DNA of 64,000 nucleotides, taken from NCBI GenBank assembly GCA_027051905.1, contig JALUGO010000015.1, forward strand, positions 1 to 64,000. The letters are read 5' to 3'. The position numbers and the translations under genes are program-made. Positions 6,551 to 12,198 of this stretch are shown piece by piece. Every line of letters begins with the position of its first letter. The first letter of the stretch is position 1. The stretch is from Desulfurobacteriaceae bacterium. GTDB lineage: Bacteria; Aquificota; Aquificia; Desulfurobacteriales; Desulfurobacteriaceae. The notes below the pieces were generated by a model that saw nothing but the letters and a program-made list of their open reading frames with translations, was not told the origin of the DNA and did no database searches.

Positions 6551-6567
6551 AGTGTTAGAATTTTAGC

Positions 6568-6966
6568 ATGGTTGTTGTGAATCTAAGTGTGGAAAAGAAG
6601 AAAAGGCCAATACCGGTTCTTTATTTTCTAAAGCCTTCTCAACAGTTTCTGCTTTTTGAAGAAAAAGTGAAAGAGGTGCTTTCCACGCTGGAAAACGGCC
6701 GAATAACAAATGCGGCTCTTTCTGAGCTTATGAGAAGGAAAGGCTGGAAAAAGTTAAGGGTTTTAAAGAAAAAGTTTGCGCGTTTTGATGAGTCGTCTTT
6801 GAGGAAGAAGAAAGCTGTTTATAACGCATTTTACAGAATATTCCAGCGGTTTTACTGGGCTATGGAGTCGGGAAGTGAAAGGGAGATTGAACTAAAAGTC
6901 TGGCTCACCTCTTCTTTAGATTATCTCTGTGAATTTGTTGAGGTTTTAGAGGGGAGGGATGACTGA
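6568..6966 (+). CDS. Hypothetical basic helical protein, first gene of an unknown cassette
   Basis: I do not recognise this 132-residue protein. It is rich in lysine and arginine (for example RRKGWKKLRVLKKKF around 51-65) and appears all-helical, with an aromatic segment YNAFYRIFQRFYWAM near 80-94. No signal peptide or membrane segment is seen. The ATG has no Shine-Dalgarno site but lies 7 bases after TAGAAT preceded by TG, so transcription may start at the ATG itself. Its end overlaps the next gene by 8 bases. A nucleic-acid-binding or small adaptor role is only a guess. Confidence 0.7.
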   Translation: MVVVNLSVEKKKRPIPVLYFLKPSQQFLLFEEKVKEVLSTLENGRITNAALSELMRRKGWKKLRVLKKKFARFDESSLRKKKAVYNAFYRIFQRFYWAMESGSEREIELKVWLTSSLDYLCEFVEVLEGRDD

Positions 6967-7306
6967 GGTTTCAAGCAGATGGGTTCTTCAGGAGGTCTTT
7001 GTCGATCCCTCTTTAGAAGAGATTTCCGAGTGTTCGCTTAACCTATCTGTCTCTTCTGAAGTTGTTGAGAAAAAGGGAAATAGGTATAAGGTTGCTGTGG
7101 AGCTTTCCGGCTCTATCGTCGGTGAGTTTCAGGTTGCAAACGTAAGGTTCGTTAATGTCTCTGTTGTTGAGGTAAAGCCTGGAACGAGAAAAGCAACAGT
7201 CTTGAAAAGACTTGAGAGGACAAAGGAGGGGGAGCTCCTCTCGATTCTCCCCATTTACCTCTTAAACGCCGGAATCTTTTTAAAGGAAGTTCGCCGTGAG
7301 CTGTAG
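6959..7306 (+). CDS. Hypothetical protein with SecB-like strand pattern
   Basis: This is an unknown 115-residue protein. Reading by eye, its alternating strands (VLQEVFVDPSL, SLNLSVSSEVVEKKGNRYKVAVELSG, VGEFQVANVRFVNVSVVEV) end with LLSILPIYLLNAGIFL. The order resembles SecB and the SecB-like chaperones that accompany some toxin-antitoxin systems. This is fold-level inference with no diagnostic motif, and could be wrong. It overlaps the gene before it by 8 bases and the gene after it by 11, so the three are co-translated. Confidence 0.65.
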   Translation: MTEVSSRWVLQEVFVDPSLEEISECSLNLSVSSEVVEKKGNRYKVAVELSGSIVGEFQVANVRFVNVSVVEVKPGTRKATVLKRLERTKEGELLSILPIYLLNAGIFLKEVRREL

Positions 7307-7994
7307 CTGCAGGAAGGGAAAGAGGTTCTTTTTACTCCTTAATGCCGAGATTGAGGAGTTTTTGGGAGCTCTCTCAAAAAACCCCAAGGCCTTTTCACTC
7401 CTCCTTGAGGTTGTAAACAGCTTCAGGCCAACAGACCCACCTCAGGTTAAGGCAGAGAGGGTGTTCCTTGCCGTTAAAGATATGGTTGAGCTTGAGCTTA
7501 TTGACTTTGCCTCTGCCGAGAAGGTTCTGAAGACGTTAAGGAAGTTTTTCGTCTCTGGAGACAGGCAGAGGGGAGACCTGTTGGAAGTTCTCGTTTCAAA
7601 GCTTGGCCCCTTTACTTTTAAAGGAAGGTTCAGACGGGTTAACCAGTGTAGAGTTTACAAAAAGAGCAGGAAACTTTCAGATAAGGAGATTGACGTTACC
7701 TTTTCCGGTAAGGAGGTTTTGGAGCTCCACGAGTGCAAGGCAAACATGGTTCGCCAGTGGAGAGACCCGTTAAGGAGAGGAAAACGGGGAAGCAAGTTGA
7801 AGTTTCTGAACTCTCTTCCTTTAGAGTGCAGTAACGGAAAGAAAATAGTTCCCTGCTGCAGCGGTTTAGACGGAGAGTTTGGCTGTCAATACGTTCGTAT
7901 GGTCTTTAAGTTTTACAACTACCGGCGGATTGAGGTTTTGGGGAGGAGGGAGCTCCTTCAGCAGTTCAGAGAGAAACTCTCCCGAAAAGGTTAA
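7296..7994 (+). CDS. Putative PD-(D/E)XK nuclease-like protein, cysteine-rich
   Basis: The 232-residue protein starts at GTG behind AAAGGAAG. Its middle has the layout of a PD-(D/E)XK nuclease: a helix with G-D-L-L-E97 (RGDLLEVLVSKL), then E131-I-D133 on one strand, and E146-C-K148 thirteen residues later. This spacing resembles restriction-like nucleases such as the Card1/DUF1887 type. The N-terminus has CSC, and a later segment LECSNGKKIVPCCSG with another Cys nearby could bind metal. No known family is recognised as a whole. It closes a tightly overlapping three-gene cassette, which suggests joint action with the two unknown proteins before it. Confidence 0.72.
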   Translation: MSCSCRKGKRFFLLLNAEIEEFLGALSKNPKAFSLLLEVVNSFRPTDPPQVKAERVFLAVKDMVELELIDFASAEKVLKTLRKFFVSGDRQRGDLLEVLVSKLGPFTFKGRFRRVNQCRVYKKSRKLSDKEIDVTFSGKEVLELHECKANMVRQWRDPLRRGKRGSKLKFLNSLPLECSNGKKIVPCCSGLDGEFGCQYVRMVFKFYNYRRIEVLGRRELLQQFREKLSRKG

Positions 7995-8026: not shown

Positions 8027-8119
8027 GTGGATACAAAACTCTTAGAACTTATTGCTATATTTATTGTTGGGTTTACAGGCTCAATGGTTTTTCTCTACTT
8101 TGTTCTGAAGAAACTCTAA
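8027..8119 (+). CDS. Small single-pass membrane protein (30 residues)
   Basis: A GTG codon preceded by AGAGAG opens a 30-residue frame ending in TAA: VDTKLLELIAIFIVGFTGSM and then VFLYFVLKKL. It is one hydrophobic helix with an acidic N-terminus and a KKL tail, so an N-out/C-in orientation is likely. It fills the gap between the nuclease-like gene and guaA, and its stop comes just before the guaA ribosome site. Function is unknown. It is supported only by frame, site and membrane character. Confidence 0.5.
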   Translation: MDTKLLELIAIFIVGFTGSMVFLYFVLKKL

Positions 8120-11618: not shown

Positions 11619-11861
11619 TTGAGAACCTATACAATTCGGCTGGACGACCGGTTTTTTGAACTACTTGAAGAGCTTTCAAGGAAAACGAGAGCTCCCAAAA
11701 GTTCTGTTGTGAAGAGAGCTCTTCTTCTTTATAAAAAAGAGCTTGAGAAAGAGGAAATGCTCAGGAATTTAATTGAATCTGCTAAAGAGCTTGCCAATGA
11801 CCCTGAAAACCTGAAAGATATTGCAGAGTTAGAGGGAACAGTATCCGATGGGCTTGATTAG
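11619..11861 (+). CDS. Ribbon-helix-helix antitoxin
   Basis: This 80-residue protein begins with a ribbon-helix-helix DNA-binding domain (MRTYTIRLDDRFFELLEELS, then APKSSVVKRALLLY). It ends in an acidic tail typical of antitoxins that wrap the toxin. The start is TTG behind CTGGAGG. It overlaps the MazF-like toxin gene by 14 bases, the usual order and coupling for a type II toxin-antitoxin pair. Autoregulation from an upstream operator would be expected but is not demonstrated. Confidence 0.85.
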   Translation: MRTYTIRLDDRFFELLEELSRKTRAPKSSVVKRALLLYKKELEKEEMLRNLIESAKELANDPENLKDIAELEGTVSDGLD

Positions 11862-12198
11862 AGGAGGTATTTACTTAGCAAAACTCAGTCCTGCAAAGGG
11901 AGTAGAACCTGGAAAGACAAGACCTGTAGTTATTGTTCAGAGGCAGGAAATTCTTGATAAGTATCCTACCGTTCTTGTAGCTCCTTTAACCTCAAACTTG
12001 AAGGGTAAGTATCCTATGAGGCTTTTTATTAAAGCGAGGGAAAGACTTGAGAGGGATTCGGCTATTATGGTAGATCAGATGAGAGCCATTGACGTATCAA
12101 GGCTTATCCCGGATAGGATAGCATCTCTTACGGTGGAAGAGATGGGAAAGTTAGAAAAAGCCATTTGCTTTTTTATCGGAGCTGATGACAGAATTTAA
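11848..12198 (+). CDS. MazF/PemK-type endoribonuclease toxin
   Basis: The 116-residue protein has the MazF fold signatures: RGGIYLAKLSPAKGVEPGKTRP near the N-terminus, VLVAPLTSN in the middle and MVDQMRAIDVSRL late. MazF toxins cleave single-stranded mRNA at short sites and are held inactive by the antitoxin encoded just upstream. The key arginine of GKTRP is intact, so activity is plausible. A strong bidirectional terminator follows. Confidence 0.9.
   Translation: MGLIRGGIYLAKLSPAKGVEPGKTRPVVIVQRQEILDKYPTVLVAPLTSNLKGKYPMRLFIKARERLERDSAIMVDQMRAIDVSRLIPDRIASLTVEEMGKLEKAICFFIGADDRI

What the first reader, a model, noticed from the sequence alone, without database searches (positions are those of the whole stretch)
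6568..7994. Three-gene unknown cassette ending in a PD-(D/E)XK-like nuclease
Three overlapping unknown genes form one translational unit. The last has E97, D133 and E146-C-K148 in the spacing of restriction-like nucleases plus a cysteine cluster. The first is a strongly basic helical protein. Tight coupling of a putative nuclease with two small partners, close to dprA, is what a defence or DNA-uptake module would look like. The window offers no other candidate for an undescribed system of this size.
Basis: partly seen in the sequence, partly recalled or inferred. Interest (0 to 1): 0.62.

Follow-up and report, generated by a model that had tools for sequence, protein, structure and literature searches.

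The report
SecB-like chaperone and nuclease gene cassette
Three tightly joined genes in a heat-loving bacterium make a helical protein of unknown function, a relative of the protein-folding helper SecB, and a predicted nuclease; viruses of Clostridioides difficile carry a relative of the nuclease directly behind a SecB gene, which points to a chaperone-controlled nuclease that has become a fixed part of one bacterial family.

Summary
Three ORFs overlap by 8 and 11 bp (A 132 aa, B 115 aa, C 232 aa), and E97, D133, E146 and K148 of C are invariant in 21 homologues. AlphaFold of C gives a helical N-domain plus a PD-(D/E)XK core whose best PDB matches are nucleases (Cdn1, Can2, McrC, MspJI). A stays unassigned.

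The cassette is core and vertically inherited in one family (Desulfurobacteriaceae, Aquificota): C in 21 of 22 family genomes, in none of 114 other Aquificota. It is not an accessory island. However, C. difficile phage-plasmids carry a C homologue (hhalign E 1e-11) directly downstream of a SecB gene and a third hypothetical gene, between endolysin and integrase.

Best reading (about 0.4): a SecB-chaperone-controlled nuclease module working like a toxin-antitoxin-chaperone (TAC) system, C as effector, A as likely client or antitoxin, now fixed in this family. It fails known TAC definitions (antitoxin family, toxin fold), so it is not filed as TAC. Main rival: housekeeping DNA-repair nuclease (RuvC is missing here; C abuts ruvB in one genus). 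No activity is shown.

The parts
6568..6966 (+). Gene A, 132 aa, helical by sequence pattern, moderately basic, no known family; the fastest-evolving of the three; suggested client or antitoxin (inferred)
6959..7306 (+). Gene B, 115 aa, SecB-fold chaperone (four strands, long helix, strand); pLDDT 92
   Evidence: no significant sequence match to Pfam SecB
7296..7994 (+). Gene C, 232 aa (GTG start), helical N-domain (residues 1-86) plus PD-(D/E)XK nuclease domain (about 90-215)
7584..7586 (+). Codon of E97 in invariant RG-x-x-L-E, predicted active-site helix
7692..7694 (+). Codon of D133, predicted metal ligand
7731..7739 (+). Codons of E146-C147-K148, the (D/E)-x-K motif
6551..6567 (.). 17-bp spacer between the divergent start codons of pgeF and A, near-palindrome TGNTARAATTYTANCA (the last CA belongs to the ATG of A read in reverse); reads as a symmetric extended -10 promoter serving both genes, probably with leaderless or nearly leaderless mRNAs (inferred)
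   Evidence: same motif in 7 genomes; differs in genus g7, L086

Best explanation
A-B-C is a chaperone-controlled nuclease module. C is a metal-dependent PD-(D/E)XK nuclease, most likely acting on DNA. B is a SecB-like chaperone made in step with C through the conserved 11-bp overlap. A, the fast-evolving small protein, is the likely client or restraining partner that B keeps folded. In the working model, B-held A keeps C inactive or safely folded until B is titrated or A is lost, for example by phage proteins or heat stress; C then cuts nucleic acid. It thus works like a toxin-antitoxin-chaperone system with a PD-(D/E)XK effector. In Desulfurobacteriaceae it has become fixed and core; C. difficile phages carry a diverged cassette where phages carry accessory genes. 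Shown: gene structure, two predicted folds, conservation, distribution, and the SecB-nuclease pairing in two unrelated settings. Inferred: nuclease activity, DNA as substrate, binding among A, B and C, toxicity, trigger.
For: C: invariant E97/D133/E146/K148 in 21 homologues; AF2 pLDDT 83.8 with the expected alpha-beta order; leading PDB matches are PD-(D/E)XK nucleases, Cdn1 9u49 (E 2.8e-3, prob 0.99) and Can2 8q3y (prob 0.92), then N.BspD6I, McrC and MspJI. B: AF2 pLDDT 92; the 18 best PDB matches are SecB and Rv1957, the SecB-like chaperone of the M. tuberculosis TAC, prob 1.00. Cassette: C. difficile phage-plasmids have hypothetical (198 aa) - SecB (Pfam SecB above cut-off; PADLOC PD-T4-9_C = CmdC) - C homologue, between endolysin and integrase or recombinase; C against phage C hhalign E 1e-11 over 168 columns and 54.5 bits against at most 7.3 for 500 shuffles. 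Coupling: B and C overlap in all 16 loci holding both. In genus g7, where C has moved away, A, B and C are all kept. A has dN 0.15-0.27 against 0.02-0.08 for C among near relatives. TAC and CmdTAC precedent: PMC5105189, PMC9519451, PMC11618068.
Against: TA and defence modules are usually patchy; this one is in 21 of 22 family genomes at a conserved place. A matches no antitoxin family and shows no obvious chaperone-addiction tail. A against the phage third gene is at chance (10 of 500 shuffles as good), as is B against phage SecB by sequence (7 of 500 shuffles), so only the B fold, the C sequence and the gene order link the two cassettes. C moves away from A-B in one genus. Foldseek PDB E-values for both models are modest (none below 1e-3). 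No activity data.
Confidence: 0.4

Rival explanations
1. Housekeeping DNA repair or recombination: C is a structure-specific nuclease (for example a junction resolvase or repair endonuclease) of Desulfurobacteriaceae, and B and A are its dedicated folding helpers.
For: Core and vertically inherited. RuvC (PF02075) is absent from all 22 family genomes while the model finds it in f3 relatives and 8 control genomes. C overlaps the start of ruvB in genus g5 (L017, L020) and lies between a sirtuin gene and radC in two g7 genomes (L019, L021), with one gene between C and radC in L016. D133 to E146 is 13 residues, as I recall for archaeal Hjc (from memory).
Against: RuvC is also missing from f2 and f4 families that lack C, so the loss is not specific. 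Hjc-type ORFs occur in some of the same genomes. The ruvB and radC neighbours are genus-specific. The phage homologue sits in the accessory region after the endolysin, not in the recombination module.
Confidence: 0.27
2. Direct anti-phage defence without antitoxin logic: B or A senses a phage protein and C cuts incoming DNA, as CARF-nuclease effectors such as Can2 and Cdn1 do on another signal.
For: Best fold matches are Cdn1 and Can2. A homologous pair is carried by temperate phages between endolysin and integrase. Four-fold-site identity of C is 81-87% among three species against 46-74% in the flanking genes other than B, suggesting exchange of C within the genus.
Against: No CARF domain in A, B or C by Pfam; no PADLOC hit for A, B or C; no variable presence; fixed in the family.
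Confidence: 0.18
3. B is simply the export SecB of this family, and A and C are unrelated passengers.
For: No canonical SecB above the Pfam cut-off in these genomes; B folds like SecB.
Against: B is coupled to C by a conserved overlap; the phage C homologue is also directly downstream of a SecB gene, which passengers would not explain.
Confidence: 0.1

Closest known systems
TAC systems (HigBA-SecB, MqsRA-SecB, HicAB-SecB; M. tuberculosis Rv1955-1957)
   Same: Small three-gene operon with a SecB-like chaperone; B matches the Rv1957 structure 5mtw
   Different: Effector fold is PD-(D/E)XK, not HigB/MqsR/HicA; A is not a HigA/MqsA/HicB antitoxin; order is A - chaperone - nuclease; fixed in a family
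CmdTAC (PD-T4-9)
   Same: Three genes with a SecB-like chaperone; the phage SecB matches PD-T4-9_C
   Different: The CmdTAC toxin is an ADP-ribosyltransferase (PMC11618068); here a nuclease fold; no PADLOC hit for A, B or C themselves
Cdn1 / Can2 (CARF nucleases of type III CRISPR)
   Same: Closest solved folds to C
   Different: No CARF domain found; TM-score only 0.42-0.44; CRISPR link not examined
phrog_27061 / phrog_20189 / phrog_22416 (C. difficile phage genes)
   Same: phrog_22416 is the C family; the phrog_20189 protein has a SecB domain; nuclease directly after SecB as here
   Different: 21-26% identity for C; A and B equivalents not alignable by sequence

Membership tests
PD-(D/E)XK nuclease superfamily | E...D...(D/E)xK catalytic set conserved across homologues | tested here: met
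   E97, D133, E146, K148 invariant in 21 orthologues and the phage homologue
PD-(D/E)XK nuclease superfamily | Alpha-beta core fold with the catalytic residues in the right elements | tested here: met
   AF2 model and Foldseek matches to Cdn1, Can2, McrC, MspJI; E-values modest
PD-(D/E)XK nuclease superfamily | Metal-dependent nuclease activity | not testable with these tools
   needs biochemistry
SecB / SecB-like chaperone | SecB fold | tested here: met
   SecB and Rv1957 lead, prob 1.00, TM-score (query) up to 0.68
SecB / SecB-like chaperone | Pfam SecB sequence profile | tested here: not met
   No PF02556 hit for B or its orthologues; the phage gene does match
SecB / SecB-like chaperone | Tetramer, binding of unfolded client | not testable with these tools
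   needs biochemistry
TAC (toxin-antitoxin-chaperone) | SecB-like chaperone in one operon with a TA pair | tested here: inconclusive
   Chaperone and operon present; that A and C are a TA pair is not shown
TAC (toxin-antitoxin-chaperone) | Antitoxin of HigA, MqsA or HicB family | tested here: not met
   A matches no Pfam family and no informative PDB entry
TAC (toxin-antitoxin-chaperone) | C-terminal chaperone-addiction extension on the antitoxin | tested here: inconclusive
   The A alignment ends soon after its conserved region; no disorder or binding test was run
TAC (toxin-antitoxin-chaperone) | Known TAC toxin type (HigB, MqsR, HicA, ART) | tested here: not met
   C has a PD-(D/E)XK fold
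CmdTAC (PD-T4-9) | ADP-ribosyltransferase CmdT | tested here: not met
Accessory defence system | Variable presence among relatives | tested here: not met
   21 of 22 family genomes, the exception 62% complete; none of 114 other Aquificota
Holliday-junction resolvase (Hjc or RuvC family) | Sequence membership of the Hjc or RuvC family | tested here: not met
   No Pfam hit for C or its orthologues to PF01870 or PF02075
Holliday-junction resolvase (Hjc or RuvC family) | Cleavage of four-way junctions | not testable with these tools
   needs biochemistry

The most novel reading that the evidence does not exclude
A new class of chaperone-gated nuclease module: a SecB-like chaperone and an unrelated small partner control a PD-(D/E)XK nuclease, carried as an accessory cassette by Clostridioides phages and domesticated as a core locus in a whole family of thermophilic Aquificota.
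Probability: 0.3. Interest if true: 0.72.

Novelty: new variant of a known kind. Interest (0 to 1): 0.5.

Why it matters
SecB-like chaperones are known to gate toxins that cut RNA or modify mRNA; the TAC papers read here name no PD-(D/E)XK effector. A chaperone-gated nuclease would widen the range of TAC-like control, and its fixation in a whole family would be a test case for a conflict module turned core gene. It also gives two phage gene families of unknown function (phrog_22416, phrog_20189) a testable role.

Tried and rejected
Mobile element or accessory island: rejected on the distribution. CARF-associated HTH (PF24744) for B: E 0.034, below cut-off, superseded by the SecB fold. Hits of A to designed helical proteins: composition only. 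A possible Sulfolobus match of phrog_22416 was gone at E 1e-4. Homologues of C in IMG/VR by the Aquificota profile: none; with the phage sequence only near-identical C. difficile-type contigs. No match of the C queries in the INPHARED phages and none of the B profile in IMG/VR. RuvC replacement as lead explanation: weakened, because sister families lack RuvC and C alike. Idea that the conserved N-terminal CSCRKGK of C mimics the SecA tail that binds SecB: unproven, absent from the phage C and from the paralogue.

Full report
Observation. The window lies in a 1.36-Mb draft genome whose nearest named relatives are Thermovibrio and Desulfurobacteriaceae MAGs. Three ORFs on the + strand, A (6568-6966), B (6959-7306) and C (7296-7994), overlap by 8 and 11 bp. 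Family searches of the single proteins gave nothing above cut-off in Pfam, NCBIfam or PADLOC; C alone matched two phage families of unknown function, phrog_22416 and phrog_32696, and all 21 orthologues of C did so.

C is a PD-(D/E)XK protein. In 21 orthologues R92, G93, L96, E97, D133, E143, H145, E146, C147, K148 and N150 are invariant. The AlphaFold model (pLDDT 83.8) has a helical domain to residue 86, then helix 90-103 carrying E97, strands 134-137 and 141-148 (D133 just before the first, E146 and K148 in the second), helix 163-177, strand 183-190 and helix 194-206. Foldseek against the PDB returns nucleases of this superfamily at the top, Cdn1 first (E 2.8e-3), then Can2, N.BspD6I, McrC and MspJI; the viral library gives one strong match, a 135-aa protein of C. 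difficile phage phiCD119 (E 3.2e-5). A second, longer relative of about 261 aa (here called C2) is found in most of the same genomes; profile comparison with C gives E 4e-11.

B is SecB-like. Its model (pLDDT 92; four long strands, one long helix, one strand) matches SecB of H. influenzae and E. coli and the TAC chaperone Rv1957 at probability 1.00, the 18 best hits all being of this kind. Sequence profiles do not show it, which is why it looked unknown.

Distribution. C is present in 21 of 22 genomes of the family (the exception is 62% complete) and in none of 114 other Aquificota. B is found in the same 21 genomes, with two further weak matches elsewhere, and A in 20 of them (in the twenty-first the contig ends at B). 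A search with phrog_22416 over 391 relatives, most of them outside the phylum, found only this family. A diverges from pgeF at every locus seen that covers the site. In genus g7, A-B stay beside pgeF (L086) while C lies elsewhere, next to a sirtuin gene and near radC; in g5 C overlaps ruvB. All three genes are retained even where unlinked, which weakly supports a functional link; since this is one clade, co-occurrence alone is not independent evidence.

Selection. Among near relatives all three genes are under purifying selection, but A changes fastest (dN 0.15-0.27, against 0.04-0.11 for B, 0.02-0.08 for C and 0.06-0.07 for pgeF). Among the window, L072 and L073 C shows four-fold-site identity of 81-87%, against 46-74% in the flanking genes other than B (60-85%), and a different nearest-neighbour pattern, suggesting local exchange of C between species.

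Phage counterpart. tblastn with a C orthologue against plasmids found four C. difficile phage-plasmids at E 5e-4. In the two that were opened, the annotation gives endolysin - hypothetical 198 aa - 'protein-export chaperone SecB' - C homologue, then integrase or recombinase and repressors. The C homology is firm: hhalign E 1.1e-11, 54.5 bits against at most 7.3 in 500 shuffles, and all catalytic residues shared. The SecB call there rests on Pfam (30.8 bits, cut-off 26) and on PADLOC PD-T4-9_C, the CmdTAC chaperone. Thus a SecB-fold gene lies immediately upstream of a C-family nuclease in two unrelated settings. The B model was made from the Aquificota sequences alone and agreed with the phage neighbour. 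The first genes (A and the 198-aa phage gene) cannot be shown to be related.

Mechanism. SecB-like chaperones in TAC systems fold and protect an antitoxin; loss of that protection frees the toxin (PMC5105189; PMC9519451; in PMC11618068, phage capsid protein titrates CmdC). By analogy, B would hold A, and A plus B would keep C in check. This is inference: no binding, activity or toxicity has been shown. The housekeeping-repair rival is serious because the cassette is core, RuvC is missing from the family and C abuts ruvB or lies near radC in some genera.

The literature search covers open-access papers only, so a published description of this cassette cannot be excluded.

Noticed in passing
window 6551-6567: The 17-bp spacer between pgeF and A is a near-palindrome (TGNTARAATTYTANCA) kept in seven genomes: it reads as a symmetric, bidirectional extended -10 promoter with almost no leader on either side. 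Genus g7 (L086) differs.
   Followed up: partly
window 8027-8119, + strand: A 30-aa ORF between C and guaA (VDTKLLELIAIFIVGFTGSMVFLYFVLKKL) encodes a likely single-membrane-span microprotein kept in eight relatives; it goes with guaA, not with the cassette.
   Followed up: partly
L087:5018-5806 (G000:C9) and L022-L030: A second PD-(D/E)XK protein (about 261 aa, invariant E...D...ECK) related to C, next to the flagellar gene flgL in L023, L024, L030 and the own genome.
   Followed up: partly
window 11619-12198, + strand: By sequence pattern a small ribbon-helix-helix protein followed by a MazF/PemK-like protein: an ordinary type II toxin-antitoxin pair (no search run).
   Followed up: no
G000-G023, G026, G028-G038, G040: RuvC (PF02075) is not detected in Desulfurobacteriaceae, f2 or the f4 genomes searched, although it is found in f3 and 8 control genomes; these families may use another junction resolvase.
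   Followed up: partly
L016, L019, L021 (genus g7): C lies directly downstream of a sirtuin gene and overlaps it by 4 bp, instead of following A-B.
   Followed up: no
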